Source: Gemmatimonadaceae bacterium (GTDB lineage: Bacteria; Gemmatimonadota; Gemmatimonadetes; Gemmatimonadales; Gemmatimonadaceae). From it: DNA of 64,000 nucleotides. Under the pieces are notes generated by a model that saw nothing but the letters and a program-made list of their open reading frames with translations, did no database searches and was not told where the DNA came from. The stretch covers positions 558,001 to 622,000 of the forward strand of contig JADLCY010000001.1 in the NCBI GenBank assembly GCA_020846935.1. The letters run 5' to 3'. This document shows, piece by piece, positions 18,106 through 62,729 of this stretch. The position numbers and the translations under genes are program-made. Numbering within the stretch: position 1 is the first letter of the stretch; every line of letters begins with the position of its first letter.

Positions 18106-18260
18106 GGCGCTGTGTGGCCGGTTGATCCGGAAGGCCTGGATCACGGGCGTCCCGCGCTGAGCGGAGAACGTGCGCGGTCGGCGAGGCGACCGCGTGGCCA
18201 CGCTGGGCGCTGCGTGGCCGGTTGGTGCGGAAGGCCTGGGTCACGGGCGTCGCGCGCTGA
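18106..18260. repeat. Two imperfect direct repeats with a 100-bp period
   Basis: The 55-base segments 18106-18160 and 18206-18260 agree at 50 positions and begin exactly 100 bases apart. The following 35-40 bases of each unit also align loosely with small indels, so this looks like a tandem duplication of a unit of about 100 bases. In the first unit TGATCC and GGATCA (18124-18144) form a hairpin that the second unit has partly lost. The array occupies the middle of the 464-base gap 17992-18455 ahead of the SusC-type gene. No coding frame is convincing there. Confidence 0.75.
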
Positions 18261-54926: not shown

Positions 54927-57329
54927 ATGCGAATTCATCTTGCCCTGGCTGCCGTGCTGGTCGCAGCCACGACGCCCAGCCGACCAGCCCTGGCCCAGGG
55001 CGCCGAAACGCCGTTCCTGGGCGTTCGCGTCGACCAGGACCGCAACAAGGTGCTCCTCGAGATCGCGCCCGACCGACTCAACCGGGATTTCCTGCACCAG
55101 AGCGTGCTGGCCACCGGGGCCGGCGTACCATCCCTCGGTCTCGACCGTGGACAGACCGGCGGCAGCGCCGTCGTCCGCCTGGAGAAGCGCGGCAAACGAG
55201 TCGTGCTCGTGCGGGACAACTGGAGCGTTCGAGCGATCGGCGCCGACGCCGCGGCTCAACGTGGTGCGTCCGAGGCCTTTGCCACGTCGGTGGTCGCGTC
55301 GTTCCCGATCGAATCCGAGACGAACGGAACGATCGTGGCTGACGCGACGACGCTGTTCCTTTCCGATACGTATGGCATCGCCGAAAGCATCCGGCGCGGC
55401 CAGCAGGGTTCCGGGCGCGTGGACGCCAATCGCAGCTGGATCGATCCGGCGCGCACGAAGGCGTTCCCGCGCAACACCGAAATCCACGCGGTGCTGACCT
55501 TCGCGGTCGACAACCCCGGCTTCGCGCTTCGGCGCGCGGCGCCAGACGCCTCCGCTCCGACGTTCGAGGTACACCATTCACTCGTGGCGCTCCCCGACTC
55601 CGCCGGCTTCAGACCGCGGGTGGCCGATTCGCGGACTGGGCTCTTTGGTGGATCGTTCAGCGACTTCGGACAGGGCTTTGACGGGACGTATCGTGGCGGC
55701 AACACCGCGCGCTGGCGCCTCGTGCCGAAGGATCCCGCCGCCTACCAGCGCGGGCAGCTCACCGAGCCGGTGACGCCGATCGTGTATTACCTCGACCCGG
55801 CGATCCCTGAGCCATACCGCTCCGCCTTCCGCGAGGGCGGCGGCTGGTGGAACAAGGTGTTCGAGGGTGCGGGATGGCGGAATGCGTTCCAGGTTCGCGA
55901 CCTGCCGGCCGGCGCCGATCCGATGGACGCGCGCTACAACATGATCTATTGGGTGCACCGCAGCGGCCCGGGCCCCTCGGTCGGCCCGTCGCTCTCCGAC
56001 CCGCGCACCGGCGAGATCCTGCGCACGGTCGTGCGCATGGACTCGTGGCGCTCGCTCATCGACTACAACATCTATGCAGGCCTCCTCCCGGCCGCCGGTG
56101 CGGCCGGACTGGGCGTGAGCGCTGAGCAGTTCGCGATGAGCCGGCGGCGCCAGCATGTCGCCCACGAGATCGGGCACACCCTCGGCATGTCGCACAACTA
56201 CATCGCGCACGCGCAGGGTCGCACGAGCGTGATGGACTATCCGTTCCCGCTCATCACGGTCGATGCGCAGGGAAAGCTTGACCTCACGAAGGCCTACGCC
56301 CCGTTTGCCGGCGCATGGGATTCGCTGGCGATCCGGTACGGGCACACGTGGTATCCCGACGCGGCGAGCGAAAAGGCCGGGCTCGCGAAGATCGTGAAGG
56401 AGATCCTCGATCGTGACGTGCGCTTTGTCGCCGACCAGCACGCCGATGCCGCGGGCTCGATCCCCGAAGTCACGCGCTGGGTCGAGGGCAAGACGATGTT
56501 CGATGCCGTCGAGCGGACCTCGGCGGTGCGGCGCGTGGCGATCGACAGGTTCAACGAGCAGGCGATCAAGCCAGGCGAGCCGATGTACCTGCTCAACATG
56601 CGTTTCGCGCACGTGTACCTGCACCACCGCTACTCGCTCGAAGGCCTGGTGAAGTACGTGGGCGGGATGGACTTCCGCTACGCGATGCGCGGCGACGGGC
56701 AGGTACCGACGACGATCCTGCCGGCCGCGTCGCAGCGGCGCGCGTTAGGCATGGCGCTCGACGCCCTCGAGCCCGCGCAGCTGGCCGTGCCGGAGCGCGT
56801 CATGGCCCTGATCCCGCCGGTGCCATACGGCGGCGACGACGCCATCGAATGGATCGGGTCGGCGGGCGGCACGTCGTTCGACCAGATCTCGCTCGCCGGT
56901 GGGCTCGCCACCGAGGTGATCGAGGGACTCCTGCACCGTGAGCGGGCCGCGCGGGTCGTGCAGTTCAGCGCGCGCGACGCGTCGCTCCCCACACTCGACG
57001 AGGTGCTCTCGACCATCGTCGACCGCACCTGGGGCGCCGCGCCCGCCACTGACGGGAATGCGCAGGCGCTGCGACGCACGGTGCAGCGCGTGGTGCTCAA
57101 CACCCTGCTCGACCGGGCCGGGGATCGCCAGGCGCTGGCCGAGGTCCGACAGGGCGCGGAATGGCAACTGCAGAAGCTGGATCAGCGACTCGAGGCCATG
57201 ACGGGCGGCTCGGCGGCCGACCAGGCCCTGCGTGCTGCCGCGCGACGGGAAATCGAGGCGTACTTCGACGGCGACGACGATCCGGCCAGGCGCTCACGGT
57301 TCACGGTGATCCCGCTGCCCTGGCCCTGA
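54927..57329 (+). CDS. Exported zinc metalloprotease (DUF5117/DUF4953 type)
   Basis: An 800-residue secreted protease (leader LALAAVLVAATTPSRPALAQ). The metzincin site HEIGHTLGMSH lies at residues 413-423, giving three His ligands and the catalytic Glu, followed by SVMDYP, the Met-turn. Upstream, the DUF5117/5118-like region holds APDRLNRDFLHQSVLATGAG, and downstream comes the long DUF4953 helical part. Such proteases are common in Bacteroidota and Gemmatimonadota. It is a single gene, followed by a large hairpin at 57457-57515. Confidence 0.9.
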   Translation: MRIHLALAAVLVAATTPSRPALAQGAETPFLGVRVDQDRNKVLLEIAPDRLNRDFLHQSVLATGAGVPSLGLDRGQTGGSAVVRLEKRGKRVVLVRDNWSVRAIGADAAAQRGASEAFATSVVASFPIESETNGTIVADATTLFLSDTYGIAESIRRGQQGSGRVDANRSWIDPARTKAFPRNTEIHAVLTFAVDNPGFALRRAAPDASAPTFEVHHSLVALPDSAGFRPRVADSRTGLFGGSFSDFGQGFDGTYRGGNTARWRLVPKDPAAYQRGQLTEPVTPIVYYLDPAIPEPYRSAFREGGGWWNKVFEGAGWRNAFQVRDLPAGADPMDARYNMIYWVHRSGPGPSVGPSLSDPRTGEILRTVVRMDSWRSLIDYNIYAGLLPAAGAAGLGVSAEQFAMSRRRQHVAHEIGHTLGMSHNYIAHAQGRTSVMDYPFPLITVDAQGKLDLTKAYAPFAGAWDSLAIRYGHTWYPDAASEKAGLAKIVKEILDRDVRFVADQHADAAGSIPEVTRWVEGKTMFDAVERTSAVRRVAIDRFNEQAIKPGEPMYLLNMRFAHVYLHHRYSLEGLVKYVGGMDFRYAMRGDGQVPTTILPAASQRRALGMALDALEPAQLAVPERVMALIPPVPYGGDDAIEWIGSAGGTSFDQISLAGGLATEVIEGLLHRERAARVVQFSARDASLPTLDEVLSTIVDRTWGAAPATDGNAQALRRTVQRVVLNTLLDRAGDRQALAEVRQGAEWQLQKLDQRLEAMTGGSAADQALRAAARREIEAYFDGDDDPARRSRFTVIPLPWP

Positions 57330-57456
57330 GCCTGAACACACGGTCGCGTCCGGCGCTACGCCGGCCACGAGGAGGGTGCCGACGAGCGTATTGTTGTGGT
57401 TGGCCGCGAGGATCGCGGGCCGGGCGACGGGGAGGCGGTCCATGGCCCGGCCGCGA

Positions 57457-57609: not shown

Positions 57610-58839
57610 ATGCACGGGCAATTCACCTGGTACGAACTCACGACACCTGACGTGGGCGCGGCGACGCGATTCTACCCGACCTTGAGCGGCTGGGGCACTC
57701 AGACGTTCGATGGGGACTACATGCTGTTCACAAACCGAGACGTGCCGGTAGCCGGGATCTTTCGGCTGAGCGACGAGATGGCGGGCCACGGCGTGCCACC
57801 CAACTGGATGCCATACGTCGAAAGCAGCAACGTCGACGACACCGTGGCACGCGCGGTGTCACTCGGCGCCAGGACCCTTCATGGGCCCGCCGAGATTCCC
57901 GGCACGGGACGGTTTGCCGTGGTGCAGGATCCCCAGGGCGCGGTCTTCGGCGTGTACAGGTCCGCTCATGCATCGGGCGCGTGGGACGGCACCGCGGCCG
58001 TCGGTCGGTTCTCGTGGCACGAACTCATGACGACTGACCGCCGGGCGGCGTTCGAGTTCTATCGTGACCTCTTTGGATGGGACGCGATCACCGAGAGTGA
58101 CATGGGGGATGGCTTGATGTACGCCATGTTCGGCAAGGGCTCGGCGATGTACGGCGGCATGTATGACAAGCTTCCGGGCATGGAGCAGTTGCCGTCGTGC
58201 TGGCTGGTGTACCTGTGCGTGAAGGACGTTGGCGAAGGTGTTGAGCGAGCGACCGGGGCTGGTGCGACCGTGGTGCGACCGCAGATGGACATCCCCGATG
58301 GATCGATCGCGGTCCTCAACGATCCTCAGGGCGCGGCGTTCGCGCTGCACCACCTGAACCCGATTCGCTCCTCCGCGACGCCGCCCGCGCGGGCCGCGAA
58401 GAAGGCCACCGGATTGAAGGCGGCCAGCAAGGGGGCAAAGGCGACCCCAAAGGGCAAGGCGCGCGCCGCGACTGGGTCGGGCGCCACGAAGGCGAAGAAG
58501 GCAGCGAAGAAGGTCACGGCATCATCGCGTCCAGCGGGTCGCAAGGCCGCGAAGTCGGCGGCAAGGAACCGGCCGAGGAAGGCCGCGAAGCCGTCAGCCC
58601 GCAGGGCCGCGAAGCCGACCGCTCGCAAGGGCGCGAAGCCGACCGCTCGCAAGGCCGCGAAGCTGACGGCCCGCAAGGGCACGAAGCTTACGGCCCGCAA
58701 GGCCACGAAGCCGGCGTTGCACAGGACGACGAAGCGCCCCGCCCGCCCGACGACCAGGGCCGCCACCCGGAAGTCCGCGCAGCGCGTCGCAGGGCACTCG
58801 ACGCGGTCGCTGCGACGAGGGCGCGCCCGCAAGCGCTAG
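57610..58839 (+). CDS. Two VOC domains fused to a histone H1-like basic tail
   Basis: A 409-residue protein. Residues 1-118 and 131-248 are two VOC modules (FTWYELTTPDVGAATRFY with VVQDPQGAVFGVY; FSWHELMTTDRRAAFEFYRD with VLNDPQGAAFALH), the arrangement of glyoxalase-like two-domain proteins. From about residue 252 to the end the chain is almost only Ala, Lys, Arg, Thr, Pro, Gly and Ser, with repeats such as PTARKGAK and LTARKATK, resembling bacterial histone H1-like (AlgP/HupB-tail) sequence. The tail probably binds DNA or another polyanion. The frame is continuous, with no stop or shift at the junction. The ATG at 57610 directly begins the first VOC strand. Confidence 0.85.
   Translation: MHGQFTWYELTTPDVGAATRFYPTLSGWGTQTFDGDYMLFTNRDVPVAGIFRLSDEMAGHGVPPNWMPYVESSNVDDTVARAVSLGARTLHGPAEIPGTGRFAVVQDPQGAVFGVYRSAHASGAWDGTAAVGRFSWHELMTTDRRAAFEFYRDLFGWDAITESDMGDGLMYAMFGKGSAMYGGMYDKLPGMEQLPSCWLVYLCVKDVGEGVERATGAGATVVRPQMDIPDGSIAVLNDPQGAAFALHHLNPIRSSATPPARAAKKATGLKAASKGAKATPKGKARAATGSGATKAKKAAKKVTASSRPAGRKAAKSAARNRPRKAAKPSARRAAKPTARKGAKPTARKAAKLTARKGTKLTARKATKPALHRTTKRPARPTTRAATRKSAQRVAGHSTRSLRRGRARKR
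58591..58710 (+). repeat. Five 24-bp coding repeats in the histone-like tail
   Basis: Five consecutive units of 24 bases encode eight residues each (PSARRAAK, PTARKGAK, PTARKAAK, LTARKGTK, LTARKATK). The second and third differ at one base; the outer ones differ more. Unit number could change by slippage without disturbing the reading frame. Confidence 0.9.
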
Positions 58840-60719: not shown

Positions 60720-62102
60720 CTAGCGGCGGACAGCTTCCAACCTGCGGGCGCCGCCGCCGAGTACGAAGCCGGTGACGCGGGCCCCGGCAACATCGAAGGC
60801 CACACGACCGACGCCGGGCGCGATGAACACATCGCCACCCTGGCTCATCAGGCGCACGGCGCGCTCCCCGTCGGACTGGATCATGAGCTGCCCATTCTCT
60901 TCGAAGATGCGCACGGGATTCCGGGTGCCATCGGGTCGCGTGAGGTCGTACGAGCCCGCGAACTTCGCTCGGTCGGCGGCCGCGATCGCCAGGTCCTTCG
61001 GCGGGCCTGGCGGCGTGGCCGGGGGCAGGCCGAGCGTCGCGCGCGCGAGGGCCATGGCCACCTGATCCGCGGGCGCCGGACTGGTGTTGGCGAGCACCGC
61101 GATGATGAGCGAGTCCTGCGGCAGGTGCACGAGCGATGAGATGAATCCGTTGATGCCGCCGCCGTGCGAAACGACGCGGTGCGCGCCAAGCGTATCGACG
61201 GTAAGGCCGAACCCGTAGGTCATGGGGCGACCGCTCGTGAGCGGAACCGGCGAGGTCATCGCGCCATACGACGCCGACGACACCACACGGCCCGAGGCGA
61301 GGTGGTCAGTCCATCGCACCAGGTCCACGACCGTGGAGCACAGCGAACCCGCGGCGTACGGCAGGTCCATGCTGATGAACGATGTGTTCACAAGCCCCTG
61401 CGCTCCGCGATCATGGCCGTGCGCTCGCCGGGGAATGAGTTTGCGCGTGTCGCAGTAGGTGGTCCCGGGCAGGCCGAGGGGCGCAAACATCTGCGCGGCC
61501 AGCCAGTCGCTGTAGGACTTGCCGGTCACTTGTTCGATCAGCATGCCGAGCATGTAGTACCCGGTGTTGTTGTAGTAGAAATGTGACACGGGTTCGAACA
61601 TCAGCGCGTTCGGCGCGATGAGCGCGACGAGGGAATCGTGTGAGAGGTCGGAGCGAATCACGGCGCCGAAGGTGGCGCCGACATCGGTGTAGCTCGGGAT
61701 GCCCGACGTGTGATTGAGGAGGTGACGCACCGTGATGCGCTTGCCGCGCGTCGGGTACCTGGGGAGAAACTTCGCCATGTCGTCATCAAGGCTTACCTTG
61801 CCCTGCTCGACGAGCTGCATCACGGCGGCGGCGGTGAACTGCTTGGTGACTGAACCGATGCGGAAGACCGACTGTGGGGTGGCGGGAACCTGGTTCTCGA
61901 GGTCGGCGAGGCCGTACCCCTTCAACAGGAGCGTGTCGCGACCGCGCACCACAGCGACGGCCATGCCGGCCACGCTGCCCGCCGCGACAGGTGCGCCCGC
62001 AATGGAATCCAGCCGCTGGACCAGCGCCGCACGGGACGGAGCTTGCGCGGCCAGGGAAGACGCGCCCAGCAGCGTGGCGATCGTGAGCGACCGCAGGACC
62101 AT
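60720..62102 (-). CDS. Exported class C beta-lactamase-like serine hydrolase
   Basis: A 460-residue protein with leader LTIATLLGASSLAAQ. The SxxK motif is SVTK in FRIGSVTKQFTAAAVMQLVE, the YxN motif is in FYYNNTGYYMLGMLIEQVTG, and the third motif is HGGGINGF. A C-terminal beta domain follows (FAGSYDLTRPDGTRNPVRIF). Family members are D-aminopeptidases, esterases or beta-lactamases; the C-terminal domain favours a peptidase/esterase. It diverges from the thermonuclease gene. Confidence 0.9.
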   Translation of the reverse strand: MVLRSLTIATLLGASSLAAQAPSRAALVQRLDSIAGAPVAAGSVAGMAVAVVRGRDTLLLKGYGLADLENQVPATPQSVFRIGSVTKQFTAAAVMQLVEQGKVSLDDDMAKFLPRYPTRGKRITVRHLLNHTSGIPSYTDVGATFGAVIRSDLSHDSLVALIAPNALMFEPVSHFYYNNTGYYMLGMLIEQVTGKSYSDWLAAQMFAPLGLPGTTYCDTRKLIPRRAHGHDRGAQGLVNTSFISMDLPYAAGSLCSTVVDLVRWTDHLASGRVVSSASYGAMTSPVPLTSGRPMTYGFGLTVDTLGAHRVVSHGGGINGFISSLVHLPQDSLIIAVLANTSPAPADQVAMALARATLGLPPATPPGPPKDLAIAAADRAKFAGSYDLTRPDGTRNPVRIFEENGQLMIQSDGERAVRLMSQGGDVFIAPGVGRVAFDVAGARVTGFVLGGGARRLEAVRR

Positions 62103-62177
62103 GGTTGTCTCCGGTTCAGGTCCACGAATGTTCGCGGTTGACGGCAGCTGGCGGGAGGGCGTAGGCTCCGACTTCTC

Positions 62178-62729
62178 ATGCGGCGACTTCGCGCGTTCGC
62201 TTCCCCACTCCTGCTCGCCGCCTCGCTCTCCCTGCCATGGGCGTGCGGCGCAGCCGCGCAGCGCCAGGTGCCCGGACTCGAGTGTCGCGTGTCTCGGGTG
62301 GTGGACGGCGATTCGTTCGAGTGTACGCGCGAAGGTGCGGCCCACCGCGTGCGCCTGCTCGGTGTGGACGCCCCGGAGCTGGCGCAACGACCCTACGGCG
62401 AGCGCTCGCGCGAGTTCGTGGAGCGCACGATGCCGGTCGGGGCGCTGGTGGGTCTGGAACTCGATGTGCGGGAGCGTGATCGGTATGGTCGTCTGCTCGC
62501 CTGGGTGTGGCGCGACGACACGACCATGGTAAACGTTGCCGTGATCCGGGCCGGGCTGGCTGCGGTGTACGTTCTCCCGCCTAACGTGAAGTACGCCGCC
62601 GTGCTGCGCGGCGCGGCGGACGATGCGCGGCGTGCTTCCGCCGGCCTCTGGGCGACTCCGTACTTTACCTGCACGGCGACGGACTTCCGCCGTGGTCGCT
62701 GCGGTCGACCCGACGCCGGGTCGCGGTGA
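62178..62729 (+). CDS. Secreted thermonuclease (SNase-like)
   Basis: A 183-residue nuclease with a signal peptide ending near GAAAQ. VVDGDSFEC, VRLLGVDAPELAQRPYGE and ERDRYGRLLAWVW are the calcium- and phosphate-binding motifs with the catalytic Arg/Glu set. Four or more cysteines (ECRV, FECT, FTCTA, GRCGR) may form disulfides outside the cell. The length fits a single TNase domain. Confidence 0.9.
   Translation: MRRLRAFASPLLLAASLSLPWACGAAAQRQVPGLECRVSRVVDGDSFECTREGAAHRVRLLGVDAPELAQRPYGERSREFVERTMPVGALVGLELDVRERDRYGRLLAWVWRDDTTMVNVAVIRAGLAAVYVLPPNVKYAAVLRGAADDARRASAGLWATPYFTCTATDFRRGRCGRPDAGSR

What the first reader, a model, noticed from the sequence alone, without database searches (positions are those of the whole stretch)
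57610..58839. Two-domain VOC enzyme fused to a histone H1-like Lys/Ala/Arg tail
Residues 1-248 are two ordinary VOC modules. Residues 252-409 are a lysine/arginine-rich, alanine-rich tail with five 8-residue repeats, like the DNA-binding tails of bacterial H1-like proteins. The frame is unbroken across the join. A metabolic or resistance-type fold tethered to nucleic acid or polyphosphate would be an unusual arrangement. I know such tails on HU and AlgP-type proteins but not on VOC proteins.
Basis: partly seen in the sequence, partly recalled or inferred. Interest (0 to 1): 0.65.

Follow-up and report, generated by a model that had tools for sequence, protein, structure and literature searches.

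The report
VOC protein with H1-like basic tail
A small-molecule-handling (VOC/glyoxalase-type) protein in Gemmatimonadota soil bacteria carries a long, disordered, positively charged tail like that of histone H1; the pairing is real and kept in 25 proteins from three families of one bacterial order, which suggests that the enzyme is parked on DNA or another negatively charged polymer in the cell.

Summary
Window 57610-58839 (+) is one unbroken frame of 409 aa. Residues 1-251 are two VOC modules, closest in solved structures to M. tuberculosis Rv0577 and Streptomyces AbxF. Residues 252-409 are a K/R/A-rich, acid-free tail (net charge about +54) with a 24-nt (8-aa) tandem repeat. The tail is not a chance frame: all ten distinct close orthologs in the family (the window's included) end in such a tail (61-161 aa), as do 15 more distant homologs in two other families of the order. 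Every homolog examined outside the order ends just after the VOC part. Tails drift fast and change length but keep their charge and evolve below the neutral rate (dN/dS about 0.3-0.5). Some genomes hold a tailed and an untailed paralog. The tailed proteins can be one clade (AU test does not reject). AlphaFold gives a confident double VOC fold and a disordered tail. Most likely the tail is a non-specific polyanion anchor (nucleoid DNA first, polyphosphate second) of the PhaF/AlgP kind, here fused to a VOC domain. Binding and ligand are untested. It is a new variant of a known kind.

The parts
57610..58839 (+). Whole gene: 409-aa two-module VOC protein with C-terminal basic tail; start ATG 57610 (the frame is open upstream to GTG 57376, but all close orthologs begin at MHGQF)
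57622..57963 (+). VOC module 1 (residues 5-118)
   Evidence: Pfam; AlphaFold secondary structure
58009..58356 (+). VOC module 2 (residues 134-249), with conserved H137 and H247 at the places usual for VOC metal ligands
   Evidence: Pfam; model; column counts
58363..58836 (+). H1-like tail, residues 252-409: K/R 34%, A 27%, no D/E, predicted disordered (pLDDT mostly under 50)
58579..58713 (+). In-frame tandem repeat, 24-nt unit x 5.6 (consensus about KAAKPTAR)

Best explanation
A soluble two-module VOC protein of the Rv0577/KbpA/AbxF type that binds or converts a small molecule (ligand unknown; an aldehyde, aromatic or antibiotic-like compound is plausible for this superfamily). Its disordered lysine/arginine/alanine tail works as a non-specific polyanion anchor that concentrates it on the nucleoid. 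SHOWN: the domain order, its conservation, selection on the tail, disorder prediction, the VOC fold. INFERRED: DNA is the main partner, and the benefit is placing detoxification or drug sequestration next to DNA. The tail is thought to set location rather than chemistry, since tailed and untailed paralogs coexist in some genomes and share the same core residues.
For: Tail in all 10 distinct close orthologs, 57-67% identical to the window in the VOC part, and in 15 homologs from families f2 and f3 of the same order. Net charge +17 to +54, D/E 0-3%. Tail dN/dS 0.29-0.50 against 0.14-0.22 for the VOC part: constrained for make-up, loose in sequence. Tailed rows can be one clade: AU p 0.605. AlphaFold: VOC part pLDDT mostly 80-97, tail under 50. 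Tailed and untailed paralogs together in G028, G095 and G208. Other K/A-rich arms found in this genome include one on a SWIB-domain protein. Precedent: AlgP (net charge +55, 154-aa KPAA region) and PhaF, whose similar tails bind DNA and place granules (PMC9239181).
Against: No binding data. Polyanion tails bind DNA, RNA, ribosomes and polyphosphate alike, so the partner cannot be read from sequence. No gene neighbourhood is conserved that would name a ligand or process. Most genomes searched in the family lack a tailed copy (10 tailed in 118), so it is accessory. The VOC part's activity is unknown; the canonical four-ligand metal site is not evident.
Confidence: 0.5

Rival explanations
1. Same architecture, but the tail docks on polyphosphate (granules) rather than DNA, as for AlgP, so the VOC domain is a granule-associated protein or is controlled by polyphosphate under stress.
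For: AlgP associates with polyphosphate granules and needs its C-terminal tail for granule spacing (PMC9239181). The window's genome has two matches to the polyphosphate kinase family PF02503 over the cut-off. Gemmatimonas aurantiaca appears in papers on polyphosphate-accumulating bacteria (titles and abstracts only).
Against: Polyphosphate kinases are widespread, so their presence is weak evidence; no link between this gene and polyphosphate genes was found in its neighbourhood.
Confidence: 0.2
2. The tail binds RNA or the ribosome, or acts as a general solubility/disorder element or phase-separation scaffold with no fixed partner.
For: Basic disordered tails are common on ribosomal and RNA-binding proteins (general knowledge). 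The tail sequence is not conserved beyond make-up.
Against: A pure solubility element would not need near-total absence of acidic residues and such high charge in 25 sequences.
Confidence: 0.2
3. The tail is a by-product of tandem-repeat expansion in a GC-rich genome, translated but of no use.
For: A 24-nt tandem repeat is present and tail length varies 32-161 aa.
Against: Tails without the same repeat keep the same charge; dN/dS below 1; found across three families; high-charge shadow frames of this genome are Arg-rich, not Lys-rich.
Confidence: 0.07
4. Sequencing or frame error: the VOC gene ends near residue 250 and the tail is another frame.
For: None found.
Against: Same unbroken frame in ten distinct close orthologs, counting the window's own, in different assemblies.
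Confidence: 0.01

Closest known systems
Rv0577 (M. tuberculosis; PDB 3oxh, titled kinase inhibitor homolog), the KbpA-like two-module VOC group
   Same: Two VOC modules in one chain; VIA-align Z 30.1, rmsd 1.9 over 234 residues, 32% identity; the NCBIfam KbpA model matches over nearly its whole length
   Different: KbpA model score 91.8 is far below its cut-off of 250; the Rv0577 chain ends with the VOC part (282 residues) and has no basic tail
AbxF (Streptomyces; anthrabenzoxocinone spiroketal formation; PDB 8stb, 9jt3)
   Same: Two-module VOC fold, Z 24.1 over 212 residues, about 30% identity
   Different: Part of an antibiotic pathway; no tail; no conserved pathway genes seen beside this gene
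AlgP and PhaF of Pseudomonas (H1-like KPAA tails on a helical or phasin N-terminus)
   Same: Disordered, K/A/P-rich C-terminal tail of similar length and charge (AlgP 154-aa region, protein net charge +55; PMC9239181)
   Different: Their N-terminal part is helical/phasin, not VOC; this tail is about equal in K and R and has its own repeat (KAAKPTAR type)
SWIB-domain protein with N-terminal K/A arm in the same genome
   Same: K/A-rich arm of H1 type
   Different: Arm at the N-terminus, SWIB fold

Membership tests
VOC superfamily (glyoxalase/bleomycin resistance/dioxygenase fold) | Pfam VOC model above its curated cut-off and paired beta-alpha-beta-beta-beta modules | tested here: met
   PF18029 53.8 bits against 23.6, PF00903 49.7 against 20.6; fold match
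VOC superfamily (glyoxalase/bleomycin resistance/dioxygenase fold) | Complete metal-ligand set | tested here: inconclusive
   H137 and H247 conserved in tailed and most untailed homologs; position 8 is Tyr in the window's clade and His in most f2/f3 tailed proteins; other ligands not clear; distances in the model not measured
AfsK-binding protein KbpA (NCBIfam NF053614 equivalog) | Score above the curated cut-off of 250 bits | tested here: not met
   91.8 bits
Bacterial H1-like (AlgP/PhaF-type) tailed proteins | C-terminal disordered tail rich in K and A, with almost no acidic residues | tested here: met
Bacterial H1-like (AlgP/PhaF-type) tailed proteins | Phasin or AlgP-type helical N-terminal part | tested here: not met
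   N-terminal part is VOC
Bacterial H1-like (AlgP/PhaF-type) tailed proteins | DNA binding by the tail | not testable with these tools
   needs a binding assay

The most novel reading that the evidence does not exclude
A lineage-specific class of nucleoid-anchored VOC proteins in Gemmatimonadales: detoxifying or drug-sequestering domains held on chromosomal DNA by an H1-like tail, a local chemical shield for DNA.
Probability: 0.25. Interest if true: 0.7.

Novelty: new variant of a known kind. Interest (0 to 1): 0.45.

Why it matters
H1-like tails in bacteria are described mainly on nucleoid or storage-granule proteins. Finding one kept by selection on a small-molecule VOC domain, beside untailed paralogs in some of the same genomes, suggests that bacteria can localise metabolic or resistance chemistry to the nucleoid or to polyphosphate by adding a cheap charged tail. 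That is directly testable with a single protein and its tail-less version.

Tried and rejected
Frame error or chance frame: rejected. Conserved operon giving a function: only a serine beta-lactamase-like cluster recurs near 6 of 20 loci, with no fixed arrangement, so no clue. Pfam on part of the tail alone: no family. PHROGs: none. Promoter/terminator scan: nothing. Plasmid collection: 91 homologous records, none covering 80% of the query, and the three annotated non-Gemmatimonadota hits that I opened are untailed genes of 253-266 aa. Tail on other VOC proteins of the same genome: the PF18029 hits that could be read (L204, L206, L209, L210) show none. Rejection of a single origin of the tail: AU test does not reject one clade, although the free tree needs 4 changes. 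A sample of Actinomycetota genomes could not be run.

Full report
CHECK OF THE OBSERVATION. Window 57610-58839 (+) translates without a stop into 409 aa. The frame stays open upstream to a GTG at 57376, but the close orthologs share the start MHGQF, so ATG 57610 is the likely start. Pfam finds two VOC stretches (Glyoxalase_6 53.8 bits, Glyoxalase 49.7 bits). From about residue 252 the chain is 34% K+R and 27% A with no D or E. The 8-residue repeats are real: a 24-nt unit, 5.6 copies, at 58579-58713. In 864 kb of the same genome, of 2691 stop-free stretches of at least 150 codons, this one has the highest lysine content; the other top-charged frames are arginine-rich, as expected of shadow frames in GC-rich DNA, with at most 5 lysines in their richest window.

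CONSERVATION. The VOC part found 35 of 118 genomes of the window's family at E at or below 1e-20. There is a sharp gap in score: ten genomes, the window's own among them, at about 317 bits or more, the next at 225. All ten proteins above the gap have the basic tail; below the gap, within the family, none of those read has one. The same gap appears with the profile (456-490 bits against 300). One of the ten (G057, same sequence as L002) is named in GenBank as a Gemmatimonadaceae MAG. With the profile, 15 further tailed homologs were found in two other families of the order (13 in f2, 2 in f3), among untailed ones. In the rest of the class, every homolog read was untailed (and 39 more). Homologs from Actinomycetota, Chloroflexota and a Dependentiae MAG are also untailed, as are three plasmid-borne ones in Methylovirgula, Granulicella and Sinorhizobium, judged by annotated gene length. 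'Limited to the order' therefore rests on this sampling and is not proven.

EVOLUTION OF THE TAIL. Tails range from 32 to 161 aa, net charge +17 to +54, D/E 0-3%, little hydrophobic residue. In five pairs the tail is less conserved than the VOC part, yet dN/dS is 0.29-0.50 (VOC part 0.14-0.22). For the more distant pairs dS is near saturation, so the closest pairs carry most weight (0.31 for L002/L016, 0.46 for L051/L055). This looks like selection on charge and make-up. On the maximum-likelihood tree of 84 VOC parts the label needs four changes, but a tree with all tailed rows together is not rejected and had a slightly better likelihood (AU p 0.605); a single origin with losses, or a few origins, both remain possible. 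G028, G095 and G208 each hold one tailed and one untailed copy.

STRUCTURE. AlphaFold on an eight-sequence alignment gives the VOC part mostly pLDDT 80-97 and the tail mostly under 50 with no secondary structure. The closest solved structure is Rv0577 (3oxh; Z 30.1, rmsd 1.9, 234 residues), then AbxF (Z 24.1) (Foldseek agrees). H137 and H247 of module 2 are conserved in both tailed and most untailed homologs; residue 8 is Tyr in the window's clade and His in most f2/f3 tailed proteins. A metal site is possible but not shown.

CONTEXT. The gene stands alone: the frame before it ends at 57329 and no clear gene follows on the same strand until about 59397. Across 20 loci around tailed members no neighbour is conserved in a fixed arrangement. 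In 864 kb of the own genome plus a whole-genome DNA pattern scan, other K/A-rich arms sit on a SWIB-domain protein, on a protein with a phasin-like look but no Pfam hit, on a larger protein without a Pfam hit in the part tested, and on a small protein without a hit. The genome has one HU-family match and two polyphosphate kinase family matches.

MECHANISM. The best reading is a VOC domain anchored by a non-specific polyanion-binding tail, DNA first and polyphosphate second. The precedent is the AlgP/PhaF tails, which bind DNA and position granules (PMC9239181). A link between VOC-type proteins and DNA-damage stress has been proposed in M. tuberculosis, where the SigG regulon includes two glyoxalase-like proteins, Rv0887c and Rv0911 (PMC3776920); this is only a lead. 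Binding, location and ligand are all untested.

NOVELTY. The VOC fold and the H1-like tail are both known. Their fusion, conserved as a lineage trait, was not found in the papers searched (open-access only). I class it as a new variant of a known kind.

Noticed in passing
L119, + strand frame from about 1391 (own genome C1, about 481.4-482.2 kb): Protein with a helical, phasin-like middle and a K/A/P-rich C-terminal tail (PhaF-like by eye); no Pfam hit.
   Followed up: partly
L137-L141 (own genome C2:250147-250229, - strand): SWIB/MDM2-domain protein with an N-terminal (K/A)n arm, a histone H1-like arrangement.
   Followed up: partly
L099, - strand frame starting near 18252: 658-codon frame ending in a K/A/P-rich tail after low-complexity stretches; by eye possibly an RNA-binding NYN/OST-HTH-type protein, but its C-terminal 330 aa have no Pfam hit.
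   Followed up: partly
L142 (own genome C8:80492-80511, - strand): Small protein of 89 aa with an N-terminal K/A arm and an unknown domain; no Pfam hit.
   Followed up: no
window 60720-62729 and L002 4379-6824: A serine beta-lactamase-like gene and a thermonuclease-like gene lie a few kb downstream of the VOC gene in both the window and L002; the beta-lactamase-like cluster recurs at 6 of 20 loci, possibly only because it is abundant.
   Followed up: partly
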